A stretch of DNA of 64,000 nucleotides from Actinomarinicola tropica. GTDB taxonomy: Bacteria; Actinomycetota; Acidimicrobiia; Acidimicrobiales; SKKL01. Position numbers and translations under genes: made by a program. The stretch's first letter is position 1; each line of letters begins with the position of its first letter. Below, in pieces: positions 10,379 to 55,900 of the stretch. Under the pieces are notes generated by a model. That model worked only from the letters and a program-made list of their open reading frames with translations. It searched no databases and had not been told where the DNA came from. Location: the NCBI RefSeq assembly GCF_009650215.1, contig NZ_CP045851.1:783189-847188 (forward strand), given 5' to 3'.

Positions 10379-10690
10379 TCAGCCGAGAGTGGCGACGGCG
10401 GTGAAGAGCCCGCCGATCGCTCCCATGGCACCGACCAGGAGGAACGTGTTGGTGCGCAGCGTCGAGTGCAGATCGGCGGAGAGGTTCGCCATCTCGGTGC
10501 GCAGCTCGGATCCGAGCACGCTGAGGCGAGCATCGAGAACGTCGATCCGGGCCTCGAGCCGTGTCTCGAGGCTGCGGAGGTCGTCCTTGGTGGCGACGTC
10601 GGCCCAGCCGACCGGTGGGAGGTGCTCCATGAGCGTGGTCGCTTCGTCGGGCCCGAGGATCTCCTCGAGGCGGCGGTACAGCTCGTGGGA
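10379..10690 (-). pseudogene. Coiled-coil/tail-anchor gene, copy 2, N-terminally deleted
   Basis: Matches copy 1 almost codon for codon from SHELYRRLEEILGPDEATTL through the C-terminal hydrophobic helix, but the first codons (MAITEK) and the upstream ribosome-binding site are gone. A TGA stands two codons before the homologous SHELY segment, and the next sequence upstream (about 10694-10720) resembles the distal promoter region of the other copies (TCAGGCTA-like). A deletion has therefore joined the promoter region to the seventh or eighth codon. The remaining frame has no ATG/GTG before the internal Met at 10630, leaving an 83-codon frame. Probably a decaying copy. Confidence 0.65.
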
Positions 10691-22625: not shown

Positions 22626-24092
22626 TCAGGGGCTGAAACGCTCCACGCGCGCGCGGATGACCTGGCGCTGCGCGTCGGTCTCAGGACAGTGGCGGTCGGC
22701 TTTGCGGGTGCCGGCCCGCAGCTCGGCGAGCCGGGCGCCGATGGCGTCGTGGTCGTGGCCGTCGTCGGCGAGGAGGCAGCCGATCACGGTGCCGGTGCGG
22801 CCGACGCCGCCCCAGCAGTGGACGTAGACAGCGCCGCGCTCGGACTCCGTGCGGATCGTGTCGAGGATCTCGTCATAGGCATCGTCGGCCAGGACCGAGA
22901 AGTCGGGGATCGGGAAGCGGCGGTGGCGCAGGTCGAGGCGGCGGGCCTCGGCGGTGGCGGTCACGTGGTGGTCGTAGGGCGTCAGCTCGCCGGGCTCGGT
23001 GAGGTCGACGAAGGTGCGCACCCCGGCGTCGACGAGGAGGTCGACCGTCGACCGAGACCGCCAGCCGTCATCGCTCTCGCCCGGGTACTCGCCGGCCAGG
23101 ACCCGACCTGGCTCGACCCACCAGGCGTGGTGCGCCTCGTCGTGGTCCCAGCTGGTGGACGGGCCGTCGCAGGCGCCTGTGGCGAACAGCCGGTCGGCCA
23201 TCGTCGTGATCCGCTCGACGTGGGTGATGCGCTCCCGCCACTCGGCGGGGATGCCGGACGCGCCCCAGCGGGCGCCGGCGAGCTGGCCGGCGATGGCGGC
23301 GGTGGTGTCGGCGTCGTCGCCGAGGTTGGCGGCGCGGAGGATCGCGTCGCGAGCGTCGGCGGCGCCGGCGACGGCCCACAGAGCGGCCTCGAGCGCGTCG
23401 ACGCAGAAGCCGCTGCCCCGGATGGCGGGCGGCTCCTTCGCCTGCCACGAGCCGCGGGCGACGTCGGCGACCTCCGGGTGCAGCTCACCCCATCGCCAGA
23501 AGTCGGCGGAGAGCACCTCGTCGGCGTCCTGTCCGCGGATGAGCGCGGCGAGCATGGCGCCGAGGAGGCGGCAGGCGTCGACCGGTCGGCGGGCGGCGTG
23601 GGTGGGGCGGCTGGACTCGGCCGAGCGTTCGGCGGCCTCGGCCACGTCGGCGTGCCAGCGGACGGGCACGGGGGCGAGGCGCATGAGCGAGCCGTTGGCG
23701 GCGGCGTCCTCGTCGACCGAGGGGTCGACCGGCTCGCCGGTGCGGGCGAAGCGCGAGAGCTGGCGGCTGACGGTGTTGCCGATGTCGAAGCAGCGGCCGT
23801 TGGAGGAGAGGTGCCCGTGGTCGCGCCACAGGAGGTAGCGGCGCATCTGGTCGGCGAGGTCCATGTCGCCGGTGTCGAGGAGGGACTCGGCGAGGCAGAG
23901 CGCCATCGACGTGTCGTCGGTCCACTGGCCGGGGCGCAGGCCGAAGGGGCCGCCGCCGACCATGTCGGTGATCGGCTCGAACGTGCCGGGGCGCTTGAAC
24001 TCGAGCGTGGTGCCGACGGCGTCGCCGACGGCGAGGCCGAGCAGCGCGCCGACGGCGCGGTCGCGTGCGGTGGTGGGGGTGGGGTCGGTCAT
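22626..24092 (-). CDS. ADP-ribosylglycohydrolase fused to a dual-specificity phosphatase
   Basis: 488 residues. Residues about 10-300 form a DraG/ARH-type hydrolase: GALLGLAVGDAVGTTLEF, GQWTDDTSMAL with the metal-binding Thr-Asp-Asp, and LGDDADTTAAIAGQLAGA, the second metal site. These enzymes cleave ADP-ribose from proteins, nucleic acid or small molecules. Residues about 330-480 form a cysteine phosphatase with P-loop HCWGGVGRTG (Cys426, Arg432) and a general-acid Asp candidate in IPDFSVL. Both active sites look intact. It is followed upstream by nrtR (16-base gap) and, divergently, pnuC-nadR, so it belongs to an NAD-metabolism cluster. A substrate bearing both ADP-ribose and phosphate is plausible but inferred. 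Confidence 0.88.
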   Translation of the reverse strand: MTDPTPTTARDRAVGALLGLAVGDAVGTTLEFKRPGTFEPITDMVGGGPFGLRPGQWTDDTSMALCLAESLLDTGDMDLADQMRRYLLWRDHGHLSSNGRCFDIGNTVSRQLSRFARTGEPVDPSVDEDAAANGSLMRLAPVPVRWHADVAEAAERSAESSRPTHAARRPVDACRLLGAMLAALIRGQDADEVLSADFWRWGELHPEVADVARGSWQAKEPPAIRGSGFCVDALEAALWAVAGAADARDAILRAANLGDDADTTAAIAGQLAGARWGASGIPAEWRERITHVERITTMADRLFATGACDGPSTSWDHDEAHHAWWVEPGRVLAGEYPGESDDGWRSRSTVDLLVDAGVRTFVDLTEPGELTPYDHHVTATAEARRLDLRHRRFPIPDFSVLADDAYDEILDTIRTESERGAVYVHCWGGVGRTGTVIGCLLADDGHDHDAIGARLAELRAGTRKADRHCPETDAQRQVIRARVERFSP

Positions 24093-24108
24093 GGCGGCCT
24101 CCGACTGG

Positions 24109-24837
24109 TCAGGCGGTCGGCCGACGGAACGGCGGCTCGATCGGGGCGAGGGCGGTCGAGGTGGCGCGGTAGCGCTGAGCGGGGCGGCCGCCGCTGGCGC
24201 TCGGGGTGGCGCGGGCGCCGGCGACGGGGGTGACGATGCCGCTGGCCAGGATCTTGCGGCGGAAGTTGGCGGGGTCGAGCTCGACGTCCCAGACGGCGTC
24301 GTAGACGGCGCGCAGGTCGCCGAGGGTGAACTCGGGCGGACAGAAGCGGGTGGCGATCGAGAGGTACTCGAGCTGGTCGCGCACCCGGTCGAGGCCGTCG
24401 CGGAGGATGCGGCGGTGGTCGAAGGCGAGCCGGCGGCGGAGGGCGGTGTCGACGGGGACGAGCTCGGCGGCGGTGGCGTCGGAGCCGCCCCGGGGGTCGG
24501 GGAGGTCGGCGACGAGGGCGACGTGGGCGACGGAGACGACCCGCATGCGGGGGTCGCGGTCGGGGTCGCCGTAGGTCGCGAGCTGGGTGAGGGTGGCGGC
24601 GTCGCGGCCGAGGTCGAGGCCGGTCTCCTCGGCGAGCTCGCGGCGGGCGGCGGCGTCGATGCCCTCGTCGGGTCGGACGAAGCCGCCGGGGAGGGCGGAG
24701 CGTCCGGCGAAGGGCTCGCTGCCCCGTTCGACGAGGACGACGTGGAGCCGCTCGTCGCGGATGGTGAACACGACGAGGTCGACGGTGACCGCGAAGGGCG
24801 GGAATTCGTGGGGGTCGTAGTCGAGTGTGGGAGACAT
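24109..24837 (-). CDS. nrtR: NrtR-like Nudix transcriptional regulator of NAD metabolism
   Basis: 242 residues: N-terminal Nudix fold with box GGFVRPDEGIDAAARRELAEETGL (about 50-73), and a C-terminal winged helix (about 155-215, FTLGDLRAVYDAVWDVELDPANFRRKILASGIV). NrtR proteins use the Nudix domain to sense ADP-ribose and release DNA. Here the catalytic Glu-rich box appears complete, unlike many NrtRs whose box is degenerate, so residual hydrolase activity is possible. It lies upstream of the ADP-ribosylglycohydrolase-phosphatase gene and divergent from pnuC-nadR, which are likely targets. Confidence 0.88.
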   Translation of the reverse strand: MSPTLDYDPHEFPPFAVTVDLVVFTIRDERLHVVLVERGSEPFAGRSALPGGFVRPDEGIDAAARRELAEETGLDLGRDAATLTQLATYGDPDRDPRMRVVSVAHVALVADLPDPRGGSDATAAELVPVDTALRRRLAFDHRRILRDGLDRVRDQLEYLSIATRFCPPEFTLGDLRAVYDAVWDVELDPANFRRKILASGIVTPVAGARATPSASGGRPAQRYRATSTALAPIEPPFRRPTA

Positions 24838-24853
24838 GAGGTGCGCCTCGTCC

Positions 24854-24910
24854 TGTTGTGGTCAGTTTGACTTGAACCGGAGTCGAGTAAGTGTCAGAGT
24901 GACCATAACA
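24854..24910. promoter_or_regulatory. Candidate NrtR operator region between nrtR and pnuC
   Basis: The 95-base divergent gap is AT-richer than its surroundings. Arms TGTTGTGGTCA (24854-24864) and TGACCATAACA (24900-24910) pair at 10 of 11 positions across 35 bases, and AGTTTGACTT/AAGTGTCAG-like half sites lie between. Two regulator dimers on one face of DNA could bind here. Assignment to NrtR is by position. Confidence 0.45.
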
Positions 24911-24932
24911 CCGACCGGATCCGGAGGGAACC

Positions 24933-25712
24933 GTGATGACCCAGATCGACGAGCGCCTCACCGCCGAGCAGCTCCCCGTCGTCGAGCGCACCCCCGTGTG
25001 GGGCACGGCGCTCGACCGGCGTCACGCCCTGGCGGCCGTCGTCGCCGCAGCGGCGATCACGGCGCTCTACTCGGTGCTCAGCCGGTGGGTGAGCGGCGCC
25101 GGGCCGACGACGCTCGAGGTGGTCGGGACGGTGACGTCGCTGTCCTGCGTGTGGATCACCCGGCGCCAGAACGTGCTGTGCATGCCGCTCGGGCTGGTGA
25201 GCGTCGTGGCGATGGGGGCGTTCTTCTTCGAGATCGACCTCGTCGGCCAGGGGTGGCTGCACCTCGGGTACTACGTGCCGATCCAGGTGGCCGGCTGGTG
25301 GTTCTGGATCCGGGGCGGCGAGGGTCGCACCGATCGGCCGGTGGCGTGGATGGGCTGGCCGGGGCGCATCGCCGTGGCCGTCGCCGTCGTCGCCGGCACG
25401 TTCGCCCTGGCCGGGCTGTTCGAGCGGCTGCACGGACCGAGCGACACCCTGCTGTGGGACTCCTCCATCGTGGCGGCGTCCGTCGCGGCGCAGGCGCTCC
25501 TCACCCTCAAGCGGGTGGAGGCGTGGTGGTTGTGGCTCGTGCCGGTGAACGTGTCCGCGGTGGCGCTCTACGTGGTGTCCGGGGCGCACCTGTTCGCCGC
25601 CCTGTACTGCCTGTACCTGGTGATCGCGAGCCTCGGGCTGCGGGACTGGGGTCGAGCGCACCGGCTTCAGCGGGCGGGCGCGGCGGCCGCCGAGGCGAGG
25701 TGGGCCCGGTGA
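24933..25712 (+). CDS. pnuC: Nicotinamide riboside transporter PnuC
   Basis: 259-residue membrane protein that takes up nicotinamide riboside by facilitated diffusion coupled to phosphorylation by NadR. Seen: about seven hydrophobic helices, the PnuC signatures TRRQNVLCMPLGLVSV, HLGYYVPIQVAGWWFWIRG (Trp-rich substrate region) and VEAWWLWLVPVNVSAVALY. A GGAGGG precedes GTG 24933; ATG 24936 is an equally good start. The stop overlaps the nadR GTG (GTGA). Divergent from nrtR. Confidence 0.92.
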   Translation: MMTQIDERLTAEQLPVVERTPVWGTALDRRHALAAVVAAAAITALYSVLSRWVSGAGPTTLEVVGTVTSLSCVWITRRQNVLCMPLGLVSVVAMGAFFFEIDLVGQGWLHLGYYVPIQVAGWWFWIRGGEGRTDRPVAWMGWPGRIAVAVAVVAGTFALAGLFERLHGPSDTLLWDSSIVAASVAAQALLTLKRVEAWWLWLVPVNVSAVALYVVSGAHLFAALYCLYLVIASLGLRDWGRAHRLQRAGAAAAEARWAR

Positions 25713-26845
25713 CCGGGCGTCGGGCGATCGTCGTCGGCAAGTTCCTCCCGCCGCACCGGGGCCACCACATGCTCATCGAGGCGGCGCTCGAGCGGGCCGA
25801 GCACGTGGACGTCGTCGTCTGCGACCTGGAGGGTCAATGGCCGCCAGCGGGGGAGCGGGCGGGGTGGCTGGCCGAGGTGCACCCGACGGCGACGGTGCAC
25901 GCGGTGGCCGACATCTGCGGGTGGCACTCGCCCGACCCGTGCCCGCCGGGGTGCAGCCCCGCGTGGGCACGACACCTCGCGGGGCTCGGGCTCGGTCCGT
26001 GGGACCTGGTCGTGTCGTCGGAGGACTACGGCGTGCTCTTCGCCGAGGCGCTCGGGGCCGAGCACGTGATGGTCGACCGCGAGCGAGTGGGGGTGCCGAC
26101 CTCCGGAACCGCGATCCGCGCCGACCTCGCGGCGGGGTGGCGGTGGCTGCACCCAATCGTGCGGCGGGGCCTGACCCGCAAGGTCGTGGTCGTCGGCGCC
26201 GAGTCGACGGGGACGACGACGCTGGCGCGAGACCTGGCCGACGCGCTGGGCGGGCCGTACGTGGCCGAGTTCGGACGGGCGCACAGCGAGGTGCTGGCGG
26301 CGCGGTTCGGCTCGATCGACGACGTCGTGTGGACGGCGGAGGACTTCGCGGTGATCGCCGACAACCAGGAGGCATCGGAGCGGGCTGCGCTCGAGGTGTG
26401 GGCGGCGGACGACGACGTGGTCCTCGGGCCGGCCGGGCCGTGGCTCGTGTGCGATACGGATCTGCTGGCGACGGCCGTCTGGCACGAGCGGTACCTGGGT
26501 GGGCCGACGCGGGAGCTGGTGGAGCGGGCGCTGGCAGGGGAGCGGCGGCCGGACCTCTACGTGCTCACGTTGCCCAAGGGCGTCCCGTTCGAGCAGGACG
26601 GCCTGCGCGACGGCGAGCACCTTCGGGACTGGATGACCGAACGCTTCCGCGAAGTGCTCGACGAATCGGGCGTCGAGTGGATCGAGGTCGCCGGCAGCCG
26701 AGAGGAGCGGGTGGCCGAGGTGGCCACGCTGCGCTCCATACCTCCGGTCCGTTCGCCCGGCTCTAACTGGCGTTTCGGAACTCCTCGTACCGCTCCTCGA
26801 GCAACTCTCGGGAAGGTCGCCACTCCTGTCGCCGAGGCGCCGTGA
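25709..26845 (+). CDS. nadR: NadR-like NMN adenylyltransferase / ribosylnicotinamide kinase
   Basis: 378 residues. N-terminal nucleotidyltransferase: VVGKFLPPHRGHHMLI (GxFxPxHxGH) and TSGTAIRADL (ISTxxxR-type), converting NMN to NAD. C-terminal kinase domain from about 158: VVVGAESTGTTTLARDLADAL at the P-loop position, where the usual lysine is Thr, then VAEFGRAHSE and LVCDTDLLATAVW. It would phosphorylate nicotinamide riboside delivered by PnuC. No N-terminal HTH is present, consistent with NrtR doing the regulation. The last 28 residues, and stop, lie inside the antisense strand of the HNH gene, so the original 3' end may have been replaced. Confidence 0.88.
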   Translation: MTGRRAIVVGKFLPPHRGHHMLIEAALERAEHVDVVVCDLEGQWPPAGERAGWLAEVHPTATVHAVADICGWHSPDPCPPGCSPAWARHLAGLGLGPWDLVVSSEDYGVLFAEALGAEHVMVDRERVGVPTSGTAIRADLAAGWRWLHPIVRRGLTRKVVVVGAESTGTTTLARDLADALGGPYVAEFGRAHSEVLAARFGSIDDVVWTAEDFAVIADNQEASERAALEVWAADDDVVLGPAGPWLVCDTDLLATAVWHERYLGGPTRELVERALAGERRPDLYVLTLPKGVPFEQDGLRDGEHLRDWMTERFREVLDESGVEWIEVAGSREERVAEVATLRSIPPVRSPGSNWRFGTPRTAPRATLGKVATPVAEAP

Positions 26846-27677
26846 GCTGGCTTCCGTCCATCTCCTGAATTCCGTGTCGGAGCATGGGTCCGTCCCGCTC
26901 GAGCAGGAGATCCTTGCGAACCTCGACCACGAGGTCGGGACGGACTCCCAGGATGTTCGTGTCGAAGGCTGCGTGATGGATCTTGCACAGCGCCAAGCCG
27001 TTGGGCACCACGGGCTCACCGCGCGGGTGGCTGTCGGGAAGGATGTGCGCGGCATCCAGGAGCTCGACGTGGCGCAGGCGGCAGATGCCGCATGAACCGC
27101 TGTAGGCGTGGAGAACTCGCTCGCGGAACACGGCCTGGTGGAGTCGCCGCTTGGTCACGGCTCGGTAGTACGCCTTCCGAGCGTCTTCGGCCACCGCCGG
27201 GCTGAGGTCGGGCGCCAGCGCCTCGGGCTCGGCGAGTGCGACCGTGAACGCCAGGGCTGAGGGGTCATCGCCTACGACGTACACCGGCCACGAGGCCAAG
27301 TACTGACCCTTGGTGATCCCCATGAAGTGGATGATGGGAATGTGCTCCTGCATTGCGATGCGGAGCCCGACGTTGTCGCGGTGGGCGAGGTCGGTCCCTC
27401 GGTAGCGGTAGAGGAGAAGACCCTCTTCGGTGATGCCGTCGTCGTACGGTCGTTCTCGACCGGGGGCCTCGGGGGTCGTGCGGATGCTGAGCGGCACCTG
27501 CTCGAGGACGGCGGGCTTGAAGATGCCTTGTTGGCTGACGAGCGGGACACGCCGCCCGTGCCAGGTGAACCCCTGCGCAAGGGGTCGCCAGGGGAGCACC
27601 TCGCCCCAAACCCGTGTCTGCTCCTCGAGGAACTGGAACGCTGCCAAGCGCACATCGATGTCGGGGCCCCGCGCCAT
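26763..27677 (-). CDS. HNH endonuclease, putative modification-dependent restriction enzyme (COG3440-like)
   Basis: 304 residues. The C-terminal part (about 180-262) is an HNH nuclease with zinc cysteines: SGSCGICRLRHVELLDAAHILPD, then NGLALCKIHHAAFD (His-Asn-His core). The N-terminal 160 residues (GFTWHGRRVPLVSQQGIFKP, LLYRYRGTDLAHRDNVGL, WPVYVVGDDPSALAF) match the DNA-reading domain of actinobacterial McrA-like enzymes, which in characterised relatives recognises phosphorothioate or modified bases. That specificity here is inference. It is the last gene of the minus-strand SIR2 operon (9-base gap after the phosphatase) and overlaps nadR tail to tail by 83 bases. Confidence 0.85.
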   Translation of the reverse strand: MARGPDIDVRLAAFQFLEEQTRVWGEVLPWRPLAQGFTWHGRRVPLVSQQGIFKPAVLEQVPLSIRTTPEAPGRERPYDDGITEEGLLLYRYRGTDLAHRDNVGLRIAMQEHIPIIHFMGITKGQYLASWPVYVVGDDPSALAFTVALAEPEALAPDLSPAVAEDARKAYYRAVTKRRLHQAVFRERVLHAYSGSCGICRLRHVELLDAAHILPDSHPRGEPVVPNGLALCKIHHAAFDTNILGVRPDLVVEVRKDLLLERDGPMLRHGIQEMDGSQLTAPRRQEWRPSRELLEERYEEFRNAS

Positions 27678-27686
27678 GTCAGGGTT

Positions 27687-28553
27687 CTAGCTGTTCGAGT
27701 CTCCGGATGTGAGGTTCTCAGTCGTCGTAGCCGCCGGCAGGAGCGGCAGCACCTCGTCGACCTGGGCGAGCAGCTGCTCGTTGGTGAACCGCGGCCGCTC
27801 GATGGTCGAACACTGCGCGGACACGGGGTCAGCTGGGTCGACGAGGCGAACGCGGTGGAACCGCTCGTGCATCACTCCGCTGTCGTCGACGCGCGTGTAG
27901 TGAAGGATCCCGCAGTTGGGGATCTTGCCCCGGTCGTCGTCCTCGACGATCTCAATCCACTCCTCAATCGACAGCTTCTCGAGTCGGAAGCGGAACGCCC
28001 ACATGACGTCCTCGTGTGTGACGCAGAGGACGCGGCCGGCCGGAAGCTCGCGTGCGAGGGTGCCCAGGACCTCCCGGGCCCGCATATCGAGGTCCGGGGT
28101 GCTCTCTCCGGACTCGGGTCGCCACAGGAACCGGTTGCGCCGCTTCTGAGCGGTCGACTCGGGGAACCGATCGGCTGTCTCGTCTCGGCCGAGCCCCTCC
28201 CAGAGGCCCCAGTCGCGTTCCCGTAGCAGCGGCTCGAGCTGCCACGCGGCGTTCGGCAGCGCCAGGTGGGCTGCCGTCTCGCGAGCCCGCACGTAGGGCG
28301 AGCAGTAGAGGCGATCGAACCTCTGGACTCCGGTGGCGTCCAGCCAGCTGCGCAGCCACGCGCCGGCACCTGCCGCCTGCGCGCGACCGAGGTCCGTGAG
28401 TCGGTAATCCGCAGCGCTGCGGGTCAGGTAGGCATCGGTCATCATGCTGAGGTCGCCGGCCTTTGCTGCCTCCAGCGCCACGTTGCCTTCGCTCTGGCCG
28501 TGGCGGACGAGGAACAGATCGAGCGGCATCGACGCCGCAGGCCCGTCGGTCAC
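27687..28553 (-). CDS. Histidine phosphatase family protein (PGM-like)
   Basis: 288 residues with the phosphoglycerate-mutase-type core: FLVRHGQSEGN (RHG, phospho-accepting His), YCSPYVRARETA, second acid region LLRERDWGLWEGLG, and VLCVTHEDVMWAF (second catalytic His). A C-terminal extension of about 90 residues after the core is unusual for the family. Its ATG overlaps the TGA of the upstream TY-Chap gene. Bacterial genomes carry many such phosphatases with sugar or nucleotide substrates. In this operon a role in processing a nucleotide product of the SIR2 protein is conceivable but unproven. Confidence 0.85.
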   Translation of the reverse strand: MTDGPAASMPLDLFLVRHGQSEGNVALEAAKAGDLSMMTDAYLTRSAADYRLTDLGRAQAAGAGAWLRSWLDATGVQRFDRLYCSPYVRARETAAHLALPNAAWQLEPLLRERDWGLWEGLGRDETADRFPESTAQKRRNRFLWRPESGESTPDLDMRAREVLGTLARELPAGRVLCVTHEDVMWAFRFRLEKLSIEEWIEIVEDDDRGKIPNCGILHYTRVDDSGVMHERFHRVRLVDPADPVSAQCSTIERPRFTNEQLLAQVDEVLPLLPAATTTENLTSGDSNS

Positions 28554-29009: not shown

Positions 29010-30617
29010 TCATGACGACTTCGTGGTGGGCGTCTGGGACTGGAAGCGTTCGAGGGCGGATCGAACCTCGGCACGCAGAGCAGGCCGGATCACCTTGCCA
29101 GCGACCCTTTCGGCCTCGACGAGCGTCAGGAGGTCGTCGATCGCCGTTCGGAGCTGACGTTCGCCCTCGTTGAACACGGCGTCGTAGGACTCGTCGAGGA
29201 GGTGGCGTCCTGGCGGGGAGGCCTCCGCGGCCAGTCGGTCGAGGAGGATCGCCTGGTCGCGCACAGCCGAACTGGCCCGCAACCGCTTCCTGTGCGTCGA
29301 GAGGATCGGGAGCTCTGGCTTCCACAGCTGCTGCATCACGGTGGGTTCGTCGGGCGTGAAGACGGTTCCCAGCACGTTGGTTGCGCCCTTCTGATCGACG
29401 GGCTGGAGGTCGCGCACTTGGTGGACGATGCGGTGGAAGTTGTCGTCGCTCAGCGAGTATCCGACGAACAGAAGGTGCCGAGTCAGAAGAGCGGCGTGCA
29501 CGAGACCCGCAAGCGCGCTCGCTTCGCGTTCGAAGCGGAGGTAGTCGCCACGGGAGAGGACGATGCGCTCCTTGTCGTCTACGGACCCGTGCAGCTTCAG
29601 GAGCCAGTCCCGGCTGAGTACCTGGCCGTCACGCGGGAGGATCGTCGGCGTCCTGCCGGTGTCGCTCCAGGCGGTCTCGAACAGGGTGTCGTAGTTCGTC
29701 GTGACGGCCTCGTGTGCGGGTAGCGACGCCATCAGCTGGTGGAGGAGGCTGACTCGAGGCGTCTCGCGAGGACCAACTGCGATCTGGTCGACGATGAGGT
29801 CGCGGAAGCCCTTTGGCTGGCCCGACTTCTCGATCAGCGTGGCGATGTCGCGGACGTCCATCCGGCCGAGTTGGGAGTCAGACGGTCGGTCGGGACCCAG
29901 GGTCTCCTCGATGAGCCCGTTCACGAGGGTTCGCCAGGACGGGAGTCCGGCACCCATCGAGGCGCCCGCACCGAGGAACAGGACGAGTCGTCCGTCGCGA
30001 GCTTCGTCCCTGACGCGGTCGAACGTGGCTTGAGCCGCAGGTAGCAGTTGCAGCGGAGGTCGCGCGTAGCGGCTGCGGGCCTGCTGAGCGGCGGCGTAGG
30101 CGGCCGGGTCGTAGGCGACGAGAACAGCGTCGACATCGTGGGTCTTCACTGCTCCCAGAGCGCGCTGCACGACCGCCTTCACGACGTCGCCCTTCGACTG
30201 GGAGTGAAACCCGTCGCCTGTCCCCACGAGCGGGAACGCAACAAGAGGCCGGCGGTGGTCGAGTGGCCTCGGACGCTCCGGGTTGGTCGCCTGAGCGCTC
30301 GCCCGTTGGATGAACTCGGCGACCACCTCAGCCAGGTCCGCTGCGCTCTGGTCGCGGTCCCGTGCGGTGTCGCCGACCCAGATCGTCGGACCCGCTGCCG
30401 AACGAGTGGAGGTCAGTTGCCGTGTCGAGCGATTCCGGGCGAAGGACTGACGGAGGTAGGGGCCATCCAGCGCCTCGACGGGAAGGACTTTGCGCCAGTG
30501 CTTGGCCACATGGGGGCGTGGGTCGCGCCCACGTGGAGCGGCGCCCGACGGCACGAGGATCGCGTCGCAGGCGAGGTGGCGCAGGTCGCCGTGGGTGATG
30601 AACAGATGTCCGGGCAT
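29010..30617 (-). CDS. Macro-like domain fused to SIR2 NADase/deacylase domain
   Basis: 535 residues from ATG 30617 (a TTG at 30659 would add 14). Residues 1-175 look like a macro domain: FITHGDLRHLACDAILVPSG at the start and LVAFPLVGTGDGFHSQSKGDVV with AVKTHDVDAVLVAYD at the end, where the GTG loop would hold ADP-ribose. Residues about 205-450 are a SIR2_2 domain: LVLFLGAGASMGAGLPSW (NAD-binding GAGAS), VTTNYDTLFETAW, LLKLHGSVDDKERIVLSRGDY and LLFVGYSLSDDNF. SIR2 domains of this class in phage defence deplete NAD. It heads an operon with a TY-Chap protein, a phosphatase and an HNH nuclease. Confidence 0.82.
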   Translation of the reverse strand: MPGHLFITHGDLRHLACDAILVPSGAAPRGRDPRPHVAKHWRKVLPVEALDGPYLRQSFARNRSTRQLTSTRSAAGPTIWVGDTARDRDQSAADLAEVVAEFIQRASAQATNPERPRPLDHRRPLVAFPLVGTGDGFHSQSKGDVVKAVVQRALGAVKTHDVDAVLVAYDPAAYAAAQQARSRYARPPLQLLPAAQATFDRVRDEARDGRLVLFLGAGASMGAGLPSWRTLVNGLIEETLGPDRPSDSQLGRMDVRDIATLIEKSGQPKGFRDLIVDQIAVGPRETPRVSLLHQLMASLPAHEAVTTNYDTLFETAWSDTGRTPTILPRDGQVLSRDWLLKLHGSVDDKERIVLSRGDYLRFEREASALAGLVHAALLTRHLLFVGYSLSDDNFHRIVHQVRDLQPVDQKGATNVLGTVFTPDEPTVMQQLWKPELPILSTHRKRLRASSAVRDQAILLDRLAAEASPPGRHLLDESYDAVFNEGERQLRTAIDDLLTLVEAERVAGKVIRPALRAEVRSALERFQSQTPTTKSS

Positions 30618-31418: not shown

Positions 31419-32072
31419 TCAGTCGCCGCGGCCCCAGACGAACAGCGAGTACTCGATGTCCTCCGGCGTCCATCTGTCGCCGGCGGCCTCCGCCCAGCGT
31501 TCGCAGGCCGTCAGGTAGGCGACATACCGCGCTCCCCATGAGCGCGTGCCGGCGGCGAGACGGCTATCCCAACCGAGCTCCCCCAGCGCCGTCCAGACCA
31601 GGCTGTCGAGGATGAGGGGTCGCGGGGACGCGCCGCTGGCTGTGCCGACGACCCACAGCCACTTGGTGAAGAACGCTGGCCCGACACCGGGCACCTTGCG
31701 GTGGAGGAGGAACGCACCGCCGACATCACCGTCCTGGAGACGGTCGAGGCTCTGAGCCAGGGCCGAGTCGAGCCCGAGGCTGCGGAGCGCCGTGTTGGTG
31801 TTGCGCGGTCCACGGCCGTTGCTCGTCCCGGACCCCCACATCATCGTCAGCGCGAACAGTCGACGGAGGGCATCCGGGCTGGGAGCAGCCAGCGTCTCCC
31901 GGGCGGCGTCGGCGAGCGCGGCGCGCGTGATCGACTCTGGGGCGTCGACCGTGGCGGCGATCGCCTTGTAGGCCGCCCAGGTCGCTGGTCGTAGCGTCAC
32001 GGCGCCGTGGTCGCTGCTCCTCAGCAGGTGACCAGAGGGAAAAGGGATGGCGAGGGTGGGATCGTCAGCCAT
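31419..32072 (-). CDS. OGG-fold (8-oxoguanine DNA glycosylase-like) protein
   Basis: 217 residues. The segment LLHRKVPGVGPAFFTKWLWVVG is a helix-hairpin-helix with a lysine placed as in the catalytic Lys of OGG enzymes, and PLILDSLVWTALGELGW supplies the later Asp. The family is annotated in many defence loci as OGG-fold proteins, of unknown substrate. It lies 39 bases after the helicase stop and is the last gene of the DUF6361-PLD-helicase operon. A role in cutting out modified bases from invading DNA is inference. Confidence 0.75.
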   Translation of the reverse strand: MADDPTLAIPFPSGHLLRSSDHGAVTLRPATWAAYKAIAATVDAPESITRAALADAARETLAAPSPDALRRLFALTMMWGSGTSNGRGPRNTNTALRSLGLDSALAQSLDRLQDGDVGGAFLLHRKVPGVGPAFFTKWLWVVGTASGASPRPLILDSLVWTALGELGWDSRLAAGTRSWGARYVAYLTACERWAEAAGDRWTPEDIEYSLFVWGRGD

Positions 32073-32111: not shown

Positions 32112-35100
32112 TCATCGGTCCGGCGTCGGTGGTGAGAGGTCGAGTCGCAGCCGTGCGGCCGTGTCGTCTGAACCGGCGATGCCCTGTCGTCGCAGCAGCC
32201 CGAGCAGGTCCTCCTGGCGAGGTTGCCCGAGCGTGAGCCGATAGAGCGCGACGTCGTCCTTGAGCCGCTGGAGCCGGTCATGGTCGATCGACAGCGGATA
32301 GGGCGCGGTGATCCGCTGCACCTTGGCTGGACCCGGGTACACCCAGTGTGGGGTCAGATCACCGAGCTGGTCACGGTGCTCGACCGCAGCCGCGAACCCG
32401 ACGTCCCAAGGGTCTCGAACACCAGGCGCGAGCATCGACGCTCGGTGTCGTGCTGCGATGTTCTTGCGGATCGCATGTCCGGCGTAGCGATGAACACGTC
32501 CCTCCCGCTGGTCGAAGTCCACGGGACTGGACGGGGTGTTCCAGTGGAGGACCGAGTGGCACCACCAGTGGAAGTCGATGCCCTCCTGGCCGACGCTCGT
32601 GCTGGCCAGCACGAAGGGCCAGAACGGGCTGTTGAACGCGTTGCGGACCTGCGGCTGTCGCACGTCGCCCTCGGTCTGGCGACGGTTCCCGTAGCGCAGG
32701 GCGAAGCGAGACATCAGCGGGATCGGGGTTGCAGGGTTGTCGGGATCGAACGCCGTGTATCGGGCGGGCCGCATGGCGATGGCATCGCGCACCTGGCCGG
32801 CCACCCTCAGAAGCGGCTCGTCGCTGAGCGGGCTACCGCCGGTGATCGTGCGGGTCTGGTGGTGGAGGTACTCGTCGAGAACCGCTTGGAGGTTCCCCGC
32901 GGCGCAATAGGCAACGACCGCACGCCAGTAGACGAGGCCGGGGTGCAGCTGATCGAGGAGCAGGGCCACGTCTGGGCGGTTGAAGAGAGCCCTGAACCCG
33001 TTGGCGATCGTGGCGGCTGCCGTCCAGTGGGCTGCGGGGCTCACTGAATGCCCTTCGGTCAACTGTCGACCGATGGCGCGGTAGGCAGCGTTGGCCGGTG
33101 CGTGGAGCCCGATGGCCGCAACCGTTCGACGGAGGTCGGCGGGCCTTCGCTCGGGTTGCTCGACGTCGGCGGCGTGCAGCGCGTGCTCGACGTGGCGCCG
33201 AAGGCGGGTCGGGTCCTTCGCATCGGCGTCGTGCTCTTCCGACGGGTCCGCGGCGGCGTCGCCGCTGAGGGCGCCGACGATGTCGTCGACGCCCATGTCC
33301 GGCGTGGCGCCCTCCAGCAGGAGGGGGGCTCGCCAGTACCAGGCGTCGACGGTTGTGCTGTGGCCGTCGCCGTCGTCCGGGACGCCATCGAGCTGTGCTG
33401 CGGCACGGCCCTCGACCTCCTCGGCGGAGAGCGGGCGTCCGCCTGCACCGGCGACGAGGGCGAGCGGGTCGCATCGAGTGGCGAGCGCCGGGTTGGGCCA
33501 GAACAGCGTCAAGGAGGTCATGGCCCCGGGACGACCGTCTGGCGTCAGACGGAAGTCCAGGCGTGCGTGGATGCCGCCGTCCTTGGGGGTCGTGTGGCGT
33601 TGAGCGTGGTGGCTCAGGATCGCAGCGATCGCCGTTGGTGTGGCCGCCCACGACGAGAAGATCAGCCGCTTCGTGAGCTGATCGGCGTCGTCGCGGGCGT
33701 AGGCCCCAGAAGGCTCTAGGTAAGGGAGCGAGGGCGGCATCCAGAGCAGCTGCCACCAGGCGTCGCCGGCTGTCTCCGCGACCAGCGACCTGAGTCGGGC
33801 GTTCCCCGGGTCGAAGGGCTCGCCGGCCTCCACGGCTTGTCGATCGATGCGGCGGGTGTGGCGGAGTGCAGCGAGCTCTCGCGGCTGCGACGTCTCGTCC
33901 CCGGCCAAGGCATCCCGCAGGGCGTTCCCGAGGCGGTAGCCCTCGCTGAAGTTCACGAAGTACGGCGCTGACTTCCAGTACTCGATGCTGAACGGGCAGT
34001 CGAGCTCACGCGCCAGGGCGCGAAGGGCCGCGACGTCGACGATGTCGGCCGGTTCGAGCTGGTCGGCCGGGACGTGGCGCTCGTCGAGCATGTCGAGCTC
34101 ATCGGCGGTTGGGCGCTCGGTGCGGCACATGAGCTGCAGGAGCTCGCGTCGCAGCTCGTCGGTGATCTCGACAGGATCACGACCCGTGACGGCCGCCGCG
34201 CGCAGATCGGCGAACAGGTGGCGTAGACGATCGACCGGAGCGGGTTCCCCGCCGGCGAGGAACTGAAGCGTCGCCAAGAAGTCGCGCTGGTGGTCGTCAC
34301 CGTCGAGGCGCTCCTCGGCGTAGGTGAACGGCTTGTACGGCGTCGCCGAGAGGAGGAGGACGCGTGCGTCGGCGTGGTCGAACAGGTCGTGTGCGAGCTC
34401 CGCGGCGGCACCGCTCTCAGGGTCGAGCAGGTGCCGGAAGCGCTGGAACTCGTCGAGGATGACGAGGTCCGGTTCGAGGCAATGGACGCTCGCTTGGGCC
34501 AGGGCGCCCCGCAGGTCGCTGATGAGGTCGCGTGCGGGCTCCCACTCGTCACCGGCGAGCGTCCGACGCTGCCCGATCGCGTCGCACATGCGGAGGAGGC
34601 GTCGATCGAGACCGTCGTTGCGGATAGCGGCGAGGAACGGCACGACGATCGACTCATCGAGGTGACCGTTGCGCTCGATGTGTCGTGCGAGCACGTCGAT
34701 CTCGTACTCGAACGGCTTCGCCGCCTTGCGGTACCGCAGGAGCACCCGGGCTTGGCGCGCCGTGCGTTCGTCGAGATCCAGCTCCTGGCGGAGGATGAGG
34801 TACAGCAGGGCGCGCTCCTCAGCGGCGCCAGACCGCTGACCGCGGTCGAACGAGGTGCCGGGGGTGAACGACACGAGGTTCACAGGCTTGAGCCCCTGCT
34901 GCGCAGCGGCCCTGAGCCGGTGTGACTCCTTGGCCAGGAGGGTGAGACGGCTGGCGAAGGGAAGGTGGTCCTCGCCGGTGACGTTCAGGCGCGACAGGTT
35001 CTGCTCGGCGATGTCGGCGTTGGAGCAGACGTAGACGATGTCGATCCGGTCGACGCTCTCGTCGGTCTGGAGCCGCTCGATCAGGGACGCGACCACACCA

Positions 35101-35264
35101 CGTGCGACGTGGGACTTGCCGAGGCCGGTCTCGTCGGCTGTGAGGAAGCGTCGTGTGGGCTCGAGGTCGTCGAAGTACCGCCTCATGATGTGTTCGACCG
35201 TCGCCCGCTGGAACTTGGTGAGGTTCCGGAGGATCGGTTCGGCCGTGAAGCCCTGGGAGCTCAT
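32112..35264 (-). CDS. SF2 DEAD/DEAH-type helicase of a PLD/DUF6361 defence operon
   Basis: 1050 residues from ATG 35264, which overlaps the PLD-gene stop (ATGA); upstream codons belong to that gene. Seen: Walker A ADETGLGKSHVA (Lys50), motif II LVILDEFQRFRHLL (DEFQ), motif III LLLSATPYK, and motifs V-VI TSVGQEGIDFHWW with QREGRVHRYAG. A region of about 300 residues is inserted between the two RecA domains. The domain layout resembles DISARM DrmD and BREX/phage-defence helicases partnered with PLD proteins. It probably translocates on DNA and hands it to the PLD nuclease. Confidence 0.87.
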   Translation of the reverse strand: MSSQGFTAEPILRNLTKFQRATVEHIMRRYFDDLEPTRRFLTADETGLGKSHVARGVVASLIERLQTDESVDRIDIVYVCSNADIAEQNLSRLNVTGEDHLPFASRLTLLAKESHRLRAAAQQGLKPVNLVSFTPGTSFDRGQRSGAAEERALLYLILRQELDLDERTARQARVLLRYRKAAKPFEYEIDVLARHIERNGHLDESIVVPFLAAIRNDGLDRRLLRMCDAIGQRRTLAGDEWEPARDLISDLRGALAQASVHCLEPDLVILDEFQRFRHLLDPESGAAAELAHDLFDHADARVLLLSATPYKPFTYAEERLDGDDHQRDFLATLQFLAGGEPAPVDRLRHLFADLRAAAVTGRDPVEITDELRRELLQLMCRTERPTADELDMLDERHVPADQLEPADIVDVAALRALARELDCPFSIEYWKSAPYFVNFSEGYRLGNALRDALAGDETSQPRELAALRHTRRIDRQAVEAGEPFDPGNARLRSLVAETAGDAWWQLLWMPPSLPYLEPSGAYARDDADQLTKRLIFSSWAATPTAIAAILSHHAQRHTTPKDGGIHARLDFRLTPDGRPGAMTSLTLFWPNPALATRCDPLALVAGAGGRPLSAEEVEGRAAAQLDGVPDDGDGHSTTVDAWYWRAPLLLEGATPDMGVDDIVGALSGDAAADPSEEHDADAKDPTRLRRHVEHALHAADVEQPERRPADLRRTVAAIGLHAPANAAYRAIGRQLTEGHSVSPAAHWTAAATIANGFRALFNRPDVALLLDQLHPGLVYWRAVVAYCAAGNLQAVLDEYLHHQTRTITGGSPLSDEPLLRVAGQVRDAIAMRPARYTAFDPDNPATPIPLMSRFALRYGNRRQTEGDVRQPQVRNAFNSPFWPFVLASTSVGQEGIDFHWWCHSVLHWNTPSSPVDFDQREGRVHRYAGHAIRKNIAARHRASMLAPGVRDPWDVGFAAAVEHRDQLGDLTPHWVYPGPAKVQRITAPYPLSIDHDRLQRLKDDVALYRLTLGQPRQEDLLGLLRRQGIAGSDDTAARLRLDLSPPTPDR

Positions 35265-37060
35265 GGCGTCGCCGTCCTGTGGAGCTTCGCCAACTCGGCT
35301 CGCGCTGCACTGATGACCTGCCACACGGCGTCGAACCCGTCGGGGAGCACAGTCGCTCCCGTGGTCGTGGCCTGCAGTCGCCCGACGAGCCGATCGAGGT
35401 CGTCCAGCGCCTCAGGTCGGTCCGATGCGGCGCGTGCGAGGAGCTCGAAGACGCCGTTGCTCGTCCCGGCAATCGACCATGAGCCGCCAGCGCTGCCACC
35501 GGTGTCGGCCATCAGCACGGATGGGTCGGCGATGCCGAGCAGCAGGAGCAGGAAGCGGAGGAACTTCTCGGGGGTGTCCACCTGGCGGGCGAGGATCTCG
35601 TCGAGTCGGCCGTCGGGGTCATCGACGAGGTGGCAGCGGACCACCGTCGCCTGGTGCAACTGCTCGCCTCCTGGGCCGTTGGTCGAGGCTCGAAGGACCA
35701 GGAACGGGGTGACCTGGTCGAGTGCGAGCGGCCCCAGCGTGCTGTCGAGCGGTCGTCGGTCGTCGATCTGCGCCGCTGTGCCTGGGAGGGTGATGAGCTC
35801 TGCTGTCAGGCGAACGCCGCTCGGGACGGCGAGCCGGTCGGCGGTGATGCGCTCGCGGTACGACTCACCGTCCCGCACGACGGTTGCGACGAAGTTCGCC
35901 TCGGCGGCGGTCCGAAGGAGCTCCCGCAAGAGTCGGAGCGCCTCCTCAGTCGGATCGTCCGGAGCGTCGCCCAACGGTGAGTAGGGCTCGAGGAGCGTGC
36001 CGAAGCCGTCGGTGGTGCCGAGCAGACGTTCGACGCCCAGCTTGGACGCTCCCCCGACCAGCTCGACCATCATCTCGACGTTGCCGCCGTAGGCCGCGTC
36101 GGTGGCGTTGGCCGACCCGATGAAGACGTGGGCCCTTTGGCTGCGTTCGACGACGACCATCTTTGCGTGCAGCCCCGCCAGTCGGTCTCGGTCGCGCAGC
36201 TCCTCGGCCTCGGGATCGTCGAGGTCGGCCGCCGAGTTCATGATCTTCGTCGAGCCGAGCGTCTCCAGGGTCGCCGGTGAGAGGCGCTCGAGGTCCTCGA
36301 CCCGGGACACGACCGTGGAGTCGGTCGAGGGGCTCGGGATGAGGCGCGCGAGACCGCCGTCGTTGAGGAAGGGAGCGACGACGAGGTGCCGATAGCCGTC
36401 GAACCGCGGAGACTCCGACGCGCCGATCCCGAGCGGCCAGAAGGCGATCTCGTTCACGTCGTCGGGGTACTCCCACTCCGCTCGATGCGCCGCGGTGACG
36501 AGACGGCGGATGCGTGCCGCCCGTTCAGCAGGGAGCGGGCCCGTTGCCATGCCGGGGAGGGCTTCGATGAACCGGGCGAGTGGCTGGTTGTCGCTGTAGG
36601 ACTGGGCCCCTTCGTCGGCGTCGAGTCGGACGGCGAGGTCCCAGCTGGCGTCGTCGGTGAGGTTTCGGGTCATGCAGAGGAGCCGCAGCCACGGCGTCTC
36701 TCCGTCCGCGGTGTACCGGAGGAACCAGACCTTGGGGTGGAAGAGGTGACCGGGTCGCGGGCGCCGGACCTCGTGGACCATCGGCTCGAGGAAGGCGAAG
36801 AGCCCGCTGGCCTGCATCGGGACGGTCACCTGGCCTGCCTGACAGAAGACATCGACGCGGTCGGCTGCGGAGCGCACGGCCTCCATCACGGCGATCGGGT
36901 CGCTCGTGCCGGACAGCCGGAACGACGCGAAGGCGAGCGGGACGACCAAGGCCGCGTCGAGGCTGAGGGTGAAGGTGGTGCCGACAGCGGCGTCGAGCCG
37001 GTAGCCGACCGGCGGACGCAGCATGTCGAGGAGGACCTCGCGGCGGTCAGGCGGCAGCAT
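35261..37060 (-). CDS. Phospholipase D-like nuclease, anti-phage type
   Basis: 599 residues with two HKD-like half sites: HLFHPKVWFLRY followed by LLCMTRNLT (about 107-145), and GLHAKMVVVERSQRAHVFIGSANATD (about 305-332), each keeping the His and Lys and an Asn-rich partner. Such two-site PLD proteins act as DNA endonucleases in defence operons. The C-terminal 240 residues are helical and have no known catalytic motif. It overlaps DUF6361 by 14 bases and the helicase by four, so the three proteins are likely made in fixed ratio and may form a complex. Confidence 0.85.
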   Translation of the reverse strand: MLPPDRREVLLDMLRPPVGYRLDAAVGTTFTLSLDAALVVPLAFASFRLSGTSDPIAVMEAVRSAADRVDVFCQAGQVTVPMQASGLFAFLEPMVHEVRRPRPGHLFHPKVWFLRYTADGETPWLRLLCMTRNLTDDASWDLAVRLDADEGAQSYSDNQPLARFIEALPGMATGPLPAERAARIRRLVTAAHRAEWEYPDDVNEIAFWPLGIGASESPRFDGYRHLVVAPFLNDGGLARLIPSPSTDSTVVSRVEDLERLSPATLETLGSTKIMNSAADLDDPEAEELRDRDRLAGLHAKMVVVERSQRAHVFIGSANATDAAYGGNVEMMVELVGGASKLGVERLLGTTDGFGTLLEPYSPLGDAPDDPTEEALRLLRELLRTAAEANFVATVVRDGESYRERITADRLAVPSGVRLTAELITLPGTAAQIDDRRPLDSTLGPLALDQVTPFLVLRASTNGPGGEQLHQATVVRCHLVDDPDGRLDEILARQVDTPEKFLRFLLLLLGIADPSVLMADTGGSAGGSWSIAGTSNGVFELLARAASDRPEALDDLDRLVGRLQATTTGATVLPDGFDAVWQVISAARAELAKLHRTATP

Positions 37061-38294: not shown

Positions 38295-38737
38295 CTCCGC
38301 TTGCCGAGGCCAGGAGCGCCGCCCGACACGGTCCGGATGCTCTTCGATCTTCCGGGCTTCGGAACCTTGTTGCTCTTGGGTCCGCTCTGTCGTCGTTGCC
38401 GTCGCGCTTGGTCCAGCCTGGCGAGGCTCGCGTTGGCTTTCAGTGTTGCCGCGCCGAGCGTCGCCGAGTCTGTGGCCCTGAGCAGTTCGATGGAGGCGTT
38501 CCGATAGCGCTCCCACGCGTCGACGATGCGACGGTCACGAGCGTCGAGCTGCTTCTTCGGAGAGGAAGCGGTGGGCCCCTGGTTCTTCGGTTTCGGCTTC
38601 TTCGGCTGTCTCACCGGTTCAGCGGCTGCCTTCAGTGCACCCTCAGCCGCAACTGCCCCGAGCACCCTGCGAGGTGGCTTCGCACCCGCTGGAGTCGACG
38701 AGTCGGCTGGTGATATGTCGTCGCGAGGCCCGCCCAT
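38291..38737 (-). CDS. Small basic, low-complexity protein heading the DUF6361 operon
   Basis: 148 residues from ATG 38737. N-terminal 55 residues are Pro/Ala-rich, followed by a Lys/Pro tract (QPKKPKPKNQG), one amphipathic helix (DARDRRIVDAWERYRNASIELLRAT through NASLARLDQARRQRRQ) and a basic tail. No family recognised. Likely nucleic-acid binding by charge. ATGA overlap with DUF6361 makes it the first gene of the operon. A longer start to 38899 exists but would run through the promoter region shared with pglW. Confidence 0.6.
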   Translation of the reverse strand: MGGPRDDISPADSSTPAGAKPPRRVLGAVAAEGALKAAAEPVRQPKKPKPKNQGPTASSPKKQLDARDRRIVDAWERYRNASIELLRATDSATLGAATLKANASLARLDQARRQRRQSGPKSNKVPKPGRSKSIRTVSGGAPGLGKRR

Positions 38738-55156: not shown

Positions 55157-55160
55157 AGAC

Positions 55161-55892: not shown

Positions 55893-55900
55893 TGCTCTAG

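What the first reader, a model, noticed from the sequence alone, without database searches (positions are those of the whole stretch)
29010..30617. Macro-like domain fused to SIR2
A macro-like ADP-ribose-binding region precedes a SIR2 NADase-type domain on one chain. Known phage-defence SIR2 proteins carry other partners (for example SLOG in ThsA). A macro-SIR2 fusion could sense ADP-ribose products and burn NAD. The NAD-salvage cluster is right next door, though separated by the island boundary.
Basis: partly seen in the sequence, partly recalled or inferred. Interest (0 to 1): 0.7.

Follow-up and report, generated by a model that had tools for sequence, protein, structure and literature searches.

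The report
Macro-domain-gated SIR2 NAD-destroying protein
A bacterial protein in a phage-defence island joins a divergent ADP-ribose-binding-type (macro) domain to an intact NAD-cutting-type SIR2 domain on one chain, which suggests a switch that reads an ADP-ribose signal and burns the cell's NAD, although no function has been measured.

Summary
Window 29010-30617 (-) encodes 535 aa. Residues 1-192 match no Pfam macro model but fold as a macro domain (VIA-align Z 15.5, rmsd 3.0, 165 residues), and their profile finds one solved protein, a macroH2A macrodomain (E 7e-7). Residues ~200-410 are a ThsA/DSR2-type SIR2_2 domain; catalytic Asn308 and His343 are kept in 19 of 19 family members, window included. 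The family is patchy across phyla. Its macro domain keeps the adenine Asp (18 of 19) but not the hydrolase Asn (0 of 19), so binding is likelier than hydrolysis. Own genome: no TIR by two Pfam models, so not Thoeris there. TY-Chap3 and HNH are not conserved partners. It lies within 6 kb of an ADP-ribosylglycohydrolase (ARG) in 3 of 7 phylum genomes with both, and within 3.5 kb of a NERD-helicase in 4 of 11; small, post hoc counts, borderline with stricter controls, not seen outside the phylum. Best reading: a macro-gated, TIR-independent NADase effector; ligand and trigger unknown. A new variant of a known kind; Macro is a label among SIR2_2 partners in one figure legend (PMC12700824).

The parts
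29010..30617 (-). macro-SIR2 gene, 535 aa
   Evidence: single match in its genome
30042..30617 (-). N-terminal divergent macro domain, residues 1-192
   Evidence: AF2 pLDDT 78.0; Foldseek; VIA-align Z 15.5, rmsd 3.0, 165 aligned; profile hit to macroH2A 7.3e-7
30585..30587 (-). Asp11 of the GDL(T) motif, expected adenine contact; Asp in 18 of 19 members
   Evidence: role by analogy with Asp83 of EcThsA macro (PMC11204291, section 7 read)
30207..30224 (-). GTGDGF, residues 132-137: expected diphosphate-binding loop
   Evidence: role inferred
29388..30020 (-). SIR2_2 NADase-type domain, residues ~200-410
   Evidence: Pfam 2.2e-26; PADLOC ThsA/DSR; PDB DSR2, KomC, ThsA
29694..29696 (-). catalytic-type Asn308 (TTNYD), equivalent to DSR2 Asn133
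   Evidence: alignment; 19 of 19; codon checked
29589..29591 (-). catalytic-type His343 (KLHG), equivalent to DSR2 His171
   Evidence: alignment; 19 of 19; codon checked
29010..29387 (-). C-terminal, mostly helical tail, residues 411-535
   Evidence: AF2 model; confidence falls below 60 in the last ~35 residues
28550..28981 (-). TY-Chap3 predicted peptide-binding chaperone; probable GTG start 28 nt after the SIR2 stop (longest ORF starts at 29074)
   Evidence: Pfam PF22552 1.2e-22; GTG checked, its use is inference
27687..28553 (-). histidine phosphatase (branch 1), overlaps TY-Chap3 by 4 nt
   Evidence: Pfam 8.2e-33
26763..27677 (-). HNH endonuclease, last gene of the probable operon
   Evidence: Pfam HNH_2 9.3e-8; PADLOC HNH 4.6e-21
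22626..24092 (-). ADP-ribosylglycohydrolase (ARG) with a C-terminal HCxxGxGRTG phosphatase motif; neighbour, not part of the operon
   Evidence: PF03747 6.9e-72; NCBIfam Tri1 327 bits, below its cut-off of 490; motif read directly
24109..24837 (-). Nudix-HTH, NrtR-like ADPR-responsive repressor; neighbour, not part of the operon
   Evidence: NF050029 1.1e-34, 120 bits, below its cut-off of 400

Best explanation
This is a one-chain NADase effector gated by a macro domain. SHOWN: a divergent macro fold is joined to a ThsA/DSR2-type SIR2_2 domain with intact catalytic-type Asn and His; the gene lies in a defence island (ZacABC, BREX type 2); its genome has no TIR gene that two Pfam models detect. 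INFERRED: in the resting state the macro domain keeps the SIR2 domain off. An ADP-ribose-containing ligand (free ADPR or a derivative, or an ADP-ribosylated macromolecule made during infection) binds the macro cleft and changes the oligomeric state, and the SIR2 domain then hydrolyses NAD+, so that infection aborts.
For: Macro fold and profile hit to macroH2A. Adenine Asp kept in 18 of 19 members, a glycine-rich loop at the diphosphate position, and the hydrolase-type Asn in 0 of 19, so a reader is likelier than an eraser. SIR2 Asn/His in 19 of 19; closest solved relatives include the NADases DSR2, KomC and ThsA. Macro domains as second-messenger readers are reported for TM-macro ThsA (PMC11204291: abstract, introduction, section 7 read). 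SIR2 follows the N-terminal domain in frame in 11 of the 12 strong phylum hits. All 19 members lie on one side of a 98/100 branch of a SIR2 tree, with one stray long row; the one same-genus and two same-family genomes sampled lack the gene. Defence surroundings. Within 6 kb of ARG in 3 of 7 genomes having both, against 0 of 13 for other SIR2_2 genes.
Against: No binding, NADase or phage data. The half of the macro cleft expected to hold the distal ribose is divergent, and 6 of 19 loops, the window's own included, depart from GxGxGG, so the ligand may be something else or none. No conserved partner gene was found that could make a signal. In three same-genus genomes the gene sits among what look like housekeeping genes (L043-L045, by eye). 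The exception among the 12 strong N-terminal hits is G445, which is split and has no SIR2_2 hit. ARG linkage is small and post hoc: with over-cut-off controls only, 3 of 7 against 0 of 9 gives p 0.06; no ARG was clustered in the held flanks of 9 loci outside the phylum; a hotspot effect is not excluded. G511, G652, G666 and G051 have macro-SIR2 and no ARG.
Confidence: 0.45

Rival explanations
1. The macro domain binds a protein (phage or host) or drives oligomerisation without a nucleotide, much as DSR2 is switched by a phage tail tube protein; the SIR2 domain is still a defence NADase.
For: No signal-making partner gene found; no TIR in the own genome by two models; the distal-ribose side of the cleft and 6 of 19 loops are not conserved; in several loci no conserved neighbour was found.
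Against: Asp11 and a glycine-rich loop are mostly kept across phyla, which a pure scaffold would not need.
Confidence: 0.25
2. Writer and eraser on one chain, like macrodomain-linked sirtuins (SirTM): SIR2 ADP-ribosylates a target and the macro domain removes the mark.
For: Same pair of domain types; NAD/ADPR genes nearby.
Against: SIR2 belongs to SIR2_2; PF02146 scores 11.6 bits against a cut-off of 24. The hydrolase-type Asn is in 0 of 19 (the position rests on a weak pairwise alignment to YmdB).
Confidence: 0.1
3. A Thoeris ThsA variant activated in trans by a TIR protein.
For: ThsA is the best PADLOC match of the SIR2 half; macro readers occur in TM-macro ThsA (PMC11204291). TIR genes do occur in some genomes with the gene: TIR_2 in 6 of 16, ThsB_TIR in 4 of 20.
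Against: Neither model finds a TIR gene in the own genome. Where both genes can be placed they are apart: different contigs in G091 and G652, 141 kb in G392.
Confidence: 0.08
4. A metabolic regulator of NAD that happens to sit in an island, working with NrtR, PnuC and NadR.
For: NadR, PnuC, an NrtR-like repressor and ARG lie about 2-8 kb away.
Against: Patchy; absent from the sampled same-genus and same-family genomes; no PnuC or NadR homologue in the held flanks of other macro-SIR2 loci.
Confidence: 0.1

Closest known systems
Type I Thoeris ThsA (SIR2-SLOG)
   Same: SIR2_2 NADase-type domain with the same catalytic Asn/His, plus a nucleotide-reading-type domain on one chain
   Different: The second domain is a macro domain at the N-terminus instead of SLOG at the C-terminus; no TIR gene found in the genome
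Type II Thoeris ThsA (TM-macro)
   Same: Macro domain, here inferred to read an ADPR-type signal and switch an effector
   Different: Effector is a SIR2 domain instead of a transmembrane part; no TIR partner found; sequence not matched by any Pfam macro model
DSR2 / DSR1 / KomC SIR2 NADases
   Same: Among the closest relatives of the SIR2 half; same catalytic residues
   Different: I know of no macro domain in them (recalled); DSR2 is activated by phage tail tube protein (abstracts), KomC is solved in a KomBC complex (titles)
Macrodomain-linked sirtuins (SirTM)
   Same: Macro plus sirtuin in one functional unit
   Different: Different sirtuin family (SIR2_2, not PF02146); macro domain here lacks the hydrolase-type Asn
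Macro-labelled SIR2_2 proteins in the FAM118 tree (PMC12700824, Extended Data Fig. 2 legend)
   Same: The combination Macro + SIR2_2 is named there
   Different: Only a bracketed label on a tree; I saw the legend passage, not the figure, so identity with this family is unknown
ARG-centric ADP-ribosylation systems (PMC9503650, section 3.8, read in full)
   Same: ARG coupled to a phosphatase, Nudix repressor, TY-Chap3, and macro domains as occasional accessories
   Different: Those authors looked for ARG systems without coupled ARTs or sirtuins; that section describes no macro-SIR2 fusion

Membership tests
Macro domain superfamily | macro alpha/beta fold | tested here: met
   Z 15.5, rmsd 3.0, 165 aligned to O. 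iheyensis macrodomain; best Foldseek rows are macro domains
Macro domain superfamily | sequence-profile relation to known macro domains | tested here: met
   A2 profile against the PDB at E<=10: one distinct sequence, macroH2A 7ny6, E 7.3e-7
Macro domain superfamily | match to a Pfam macro model | tested here: not met
   0 of 12 A2 members at E<=1
Macro domain superfamily | adenine-contacting Asp (GDxT) | tested here: met
   18 of 19 members, window included
Macro domain superfamily (hydrolase classes) | catalytic-type Asn of NAAN (role recalled for YmdB) | tested here: not met
   0 of 19; Asp/Gly/Ser/Thr instead; position placed by a weak hhalign to YmdB
Macro domain superfamily | binds ADP-ribose | not testable with these tools
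   needs ITC or NMR
SIR2_2 defence NADases | PF13289 domain | tested here: met
   2.2e-26, 93.1 bits against 24.5
SIR2_2 defence NADases | catalytic Asn and His | tested here: met
   N308, H343; 19 of 19
SIR2_2 defence NADases | NAD hydrolysis and phage protection | not testable with these tools
   no bench data
Thoeris | TIR-domain ThsB partner | tested here: not met
   own genome: 0 TIR_2, 0 ThsB_TIR; other TIR models not searched
Thoeris type I ThsA | SIR2 followed by SLOG | tested here: not met
   a macro domain precedes SIR2; PADLOC ThsA models match only within residues 200-411
SirTM | canonical sirtuin PF02146 over cut-off | tested here: not met
   11.6 bits against 24
ARG-centric system | ARG coupled to a phosphatase and a Nudix/WYL regulator nearby | tested here: met
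   window ARG with HCxxGxGRTG motif and Nudix-HTH next to it; DSPc in L040 and L041 ARG, both below Pfam's cut-off; Nudix relatives within 1.5 kb of ARG in L040, L041, L068
ARG-centric system | macro-SIR2 as a functional component | tested here: inconclusive
   within 6 kb of ARG in 3 of 7 genomes with both; orientation and spacing vary; p 0.03 or 0.06 by choice of controls

The most novel reading that the evidence does not exclude
A TIR-free guard of ADP-ribosylation: the macro domain reads ADP-ribose marks or ADPR made by phage ADP-ribosyltransferases (or by other toxins), the SIR2 domain then burns NAD, while the neighbouring ARG/NrtR module erases the marks and, in this genome, PnuC/NadR refill NAD. 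The eraser and the suicide effector would be two tiers of one response to ADP-ribosylation.
Probability: 0.12. Interest if true: 0.82.

Novelty: new variant of a known kind. Interest (0 to 1): 0.5.

Why it matters
Known SIR2 immune effectors are switched by cyclic ADPR isomers through SLOG (ThsA), by phage proteins (DSR2) or by partner proteins such as HerA (the last recalled). A macro reader on a SIR2 NADase would add a switch that may respond to ADP-ribose itself or to ADP-ribosylated molecules, without a TIR messenger enzyme. Its closeness to an ADP-ribosylglycohydrolase in some genomes offers a direct test of whether bacteria guard against ADP-ribosylation by phages, as proposed for ARG-centric systems (PMC9503650). 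It also shows a macro family that no Pfam macro model recognises.

Tried and rejected
Viral scans with P0001 and with A1 found no relative; the N-terminal domain has no match in phage records at E<=0.01. In plasmids 293 records match, 0 hold 80% of the query, and the 15 listed match only from residue 191 on, covering at most 55%. So no sign of spread on phages or plasmids in these collections.

TY-Chap3, histidine phosphatase and HNH as conserved partners: rejected. Homologues by tblastn at 1e-8 in the held flanks of other loci: 0, 0 and 1 (G298, ~35 kb from its macro-SIR2). Flanks are short for some loci (L002, L007, L062).

ARG outside the phylum: the nine genomes behind L002-L008, L010 and L011 have 1 to 4 ARG matches each, but their contig numbers could not be tied to the loci, and no ARG was clustered in those nine flanks. 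The tblastn with the window ARG is not sensitive: it missed the ARG of L041.

Empty-site test in the genus of G009: only 4 genomes, 3 with the anchor gene and all 3 known to carry macro-SIR2, so uninformative.

hhalign of A2 against E. coli YmdB alone: 22.5% probability over 38 columns; weak, used only to place the GDxT and NAAN motifs. A3 holds a junk 20-base row given by mistake and was not used.

Rows dropped: G445 from the gene counts (macro match split between two frames; not among the 26 SIR2_2 hits); G171 (E 0.003, 19.7 bits) not followed; L009, L010 and L012 (Polyangium near-copies) left out of the 19-member set. For the NERD control I gave 19 of the 23 order genomes with a SIR2_2 hit and no macro hit; G510, G421, G430 and G479, all below the SIR2_2 cut-off, were not given. 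In the tree 4 of 19 non-macro loci gave no segment, L019 and L020 were not used, and one non-macro row (L038, branch length 5.06, probably cut out wrongly by my motif rule) falls among the 19; so the label needs 2 changes and only 6% of bootstrap trees show one.

Controls for linkage were chosen after seeing the loci; the ARG controls assume that searches drew the same 148 genomes; 4 of the 13 ARG controls rest on below-cut-off hits (G474, G505, G510, G520); contigs of controls are often short, which handicaps the 42-kb comparison.

Foldseek rows named SPX or designed serine hydrolase I take to contain macro carriers or scaffolds; this is recalled, not checked.

Literature: searches showed no title or abstract that describes a macro-SIR2_2 defence protein; one legend passage labels Macro among SIR2_2 partners. 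One search for zacABC with anti-phage: 0 papers. Most subscription papers are not held.

Full report
WHAT IS THERE. The gene runs from ATG 30617 to a stop at 29010-29012 on the minus strand, 535 aa, a single match in a 3.7-Mb one-contig genome. Over its cut-off Pfam sees only SIR2_2 (2.2e-26, residues 303-410); PADLOC's best hit is the SIR2 part of ThsA (1.1e-28, residues 200-404). AlphaFold2 on 12 family members gave pLDDT 76.5, pTM 0.83 for the whole chain and 78.0, 0.82 for residues 1-192 alone.

THE N-TERMINAL DOMAIN IS A MACRO DOMAIN. No Pfam macro model matches it, in the window protein or in any of 12 members at E<=1. Foldseek on the isolated model returns macro domains at the top (TTHA0132 1.8e-6, an alphavirus macro domain, macroH2A1.1, PARP9; E. 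coli YmdB a little lower; TM-scores about 0.5-0.6). VIA-align gives Z 15.5, rmsd 3.0, 165 residues with the O. iheyensis macrodomain, Z 15.3 (rmsd 2.9, 158) with YmdB and Z 15.3 (rmsd 2.7, 167) with PARP9 macro 2. Independently of any model, a sequence profile of the 12 domains finds exactly one distinct PDB sequence at E<=10: the Capsaspora macroH2A macrodomain, 7.3e-7. A glycine-rich loop stands at the diphosphate-loop position; 13 of 19 read GxGxGG, and 6 depart: the window (GTGDGF), L003, L008, L043, L044, L045. The NAAN Asn of hydrolases is absent in 19 of 19, with Asp, Gly, Ser or Thr instead (its catalytic role is recalled and its place rests on a weak alignment). This looks like a binding module with an altered distal-ribose side, but no ligand was tested.

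THE SIR2 DOMAIN IS INTACT. Closest solved relatives include DSR2, KomC and ThsA. N308 and H343 align with DSR2 Asn133 and His171 and are present in 19 of 19 members. Mutation of the ThsA residues N112 and H152 abolishes NAD cleavage, though for H152A loss of the oligomer may be the cause (PMC7272460, passages read).

A FAMILY, NOT A ONE-OFF. Of 19 loci, 11 carry both domains (titles: Myxococcales or Myxococcota, Deltaproteobacteria, Polyangium, Planctomycetota, Thermomicrobiales), 7 match over SIR2 only and 1 looks spurious. In 396 genomes of the own phylum 20 match the protein, 7 over both domains. The N-terminal profile matches 8 of 396 at E<=0.01: those 7 and one unverified weak hit. In 298 genomes of the order it matches 7, of which G445 is split and has no SIR2_2 hit. 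This leaves 11 intact phylum genomes: G000, G091, G392, G298, G075, G009, G051, G511, G590, G652, G666. The one same-genus and two same-family genomes sampled lack it. In a tree of SIR2 domains (34 rows) all 19 members lie on one side of a 98/100 branch, together with one very long non-macro row (L038), so one origin is not ruled out but not shown. One fusion lineage with lateral spread is the simplest reading.

SURROUNDINGS IN THE WINDOW. Downstream on the same strand follow TY-Chap3, a histidine phosphatase and an HNH nuclease, with a gap of 28 nt (if TY-Chap3 starts at GTG 28981), an overlap of 4 nt and a gap of 9 nt: a probable operon. Upstream on the same strand are an OGG-like protein and ZacC, ZacB, ZacA; then on the plus strand PglW, PglX, PglY/BrxC, PglZ and BrxHI, that is BREX type 2-like. 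On the other side lie NadR, PnuC, an NrtR-like Nudix repressor and an ADP-ribosylglycohydrolase (ARG) with a phosphatase motif. G+C is 0.732 at 20.0-26.7 kb, 0.685 at 26.7-38.8 kb, 0.710 at 38.8-53.0 kb and 0.677 at 53.0-64.0 kb. The operon partners are not conserved: no TY-Chap3 or phosphatase homologue in other held flanks and one HNH homologue far from its macro-SIR2.

WHAT RECURS ELSEWHERE. Seven of the 11 intact genomes have an ARG, one match each; G051, G511, G652 and G666 have none. Gap between matches of ARG and macro-SIR2: G091 0.6 kb, G000 5.0 kb, G392 5.6 kb, G590 29 kb, G298 42 kb; other contigs in G075 and G009. Thirteen order genomes with another SIR2_2 hit and an ARG hit give 0 within 6 kb and 1 within 42 kb (G451, 12 kb). 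Fisher p is 0.03 for 3 of 7 against 0 of 13 and 0.007 for 5 of 7 against 1 of 13; with the 9 controls whose hits are over both cut-offs it is 0.06 and 0.03. These tests are post hoc and small, and contig breaks handicap the controls. Nudix relatives lie within 1.5 kb of ARG in L040, L041 and L068 too. No ARG was clustered in the held flanks of nine loci outside the phylum. A NERD-helicase relative occurs in 6 of 11 intact genomes and 0 of 19 order genomes with another SIR2_2 hit (p 0.0008; within the order 3 of 6 against 0 of 19, p 0.009). It lies within 3.5 kb of macro-SIR2 in G091, G590, G666 and G392, 35 kb away in G298, and on another contig in G075. It is absent from the window's genome at E<=1e-10, and of 8 genomes searched outside the phylum 1 has a weak hit with stops inside. 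Orientations differ among loci, so this is island company, not an operon. G590 also carries ZacABC relatives, the first 7.5 kb from its macro-SIR2. In L043-L045 the gene stands among apparent housekeeping genes (by eye).

NOT THOERIS IN THIS GENOME. TIR_2 is found in 6 of 16 genomes with the gene, not in the own one (G511, G590, G652 and G666 were not in that search). ThsB_TIR is found in 4 of 20, not in the own one. In G091 and G652 the TIR gene is on another contig than macro-SIR2, in G392 141 kb away. For the genomes behind L002-L011 the places could not be tied to the loci. Other TIR models were not searched.

HOW IT MOST LIKELY WORKS. A ligand-gated NADase: the macro domain as reader, SIR2 as effector. 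The precedent for a macro reader is TM-macro ThsA, which binds ADPR and imidazole adenine dinucleotide and oligomerises (PMC11204291: abstract, introduction and section 7 read); a later paper states that His-ADPR oligomerises TM-macro ThsA of type II Thoeris (PMC12847820, passage read). The precedent for reader plus SIR2 is ThsA SIR2-SLOG. Every step from ligand to NAD loss is inference here. The nature of the ligand is open; the ARG neighbourhood makes ADP-ribose marks or ADPR candidates but does not show it.

NOVELTY. Neither domain is new. The combination is a label on a tree of SIR2_2 proteins (PMC12700824, legend passage only), but the searches named under Tried and rejected showed no description of such a protein, its divergent macro family or its neighbourhood. 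I rate it a new variant of a known kind, interest 0.5.

Noticed in passing
window 38881-58003 (+): BREX type 2-like set: PglW, PglX, PglY/BrxC, PglZ, two PDC-M03 candidate genes and BrxHI.
   Followed up: partly
window 32112-38516 (-): ZacABC (PADLOC names; strong hits over most of each profile), with an OGG-like protein at 31419-32072 between them and macro-SIR2. G590 carries ZacABC relatives near its macro-SIR2 as well.
   Followed up: partly
window 22626-26845: ARG with phosphatase motif, NrtR-like Nudix repressor, PnuC and NadR: an ADPR/NAD cluster at the island edge. A close ARG (75% identity) is in the same-genus genome G510 in another gene order.
   Followed up: partly
window 5402-5713, 10379-10630, 11481-11879 (-): Three short ORFs share the same stretch (MEHLPPVGWADVATKDDLRSLE...), seen in the gene calls.
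   Followed up: no
L040:6083-7729, L041:4290-6038, L061:6546-8711, L062:1752-3344: NERD-SF1 helicases near macro-SIR2; best PADLOC match RTasNERD-Hel, 1e-29 to 2e-38.
   Followed up: partly
L064 (G445:C14:215326-215768): Macro-like match split over two frames near genes that look like gyrA, gyrB and dnaN (by eye), without a SIR2_2 hit: possibly a decayed copy.
   Followed up: no
L003:8411-9931: HSDR_N-RAMA-DUF4268 protein directly upstream of the planctomycete macro-SIR2 gene.
   Followed up: no
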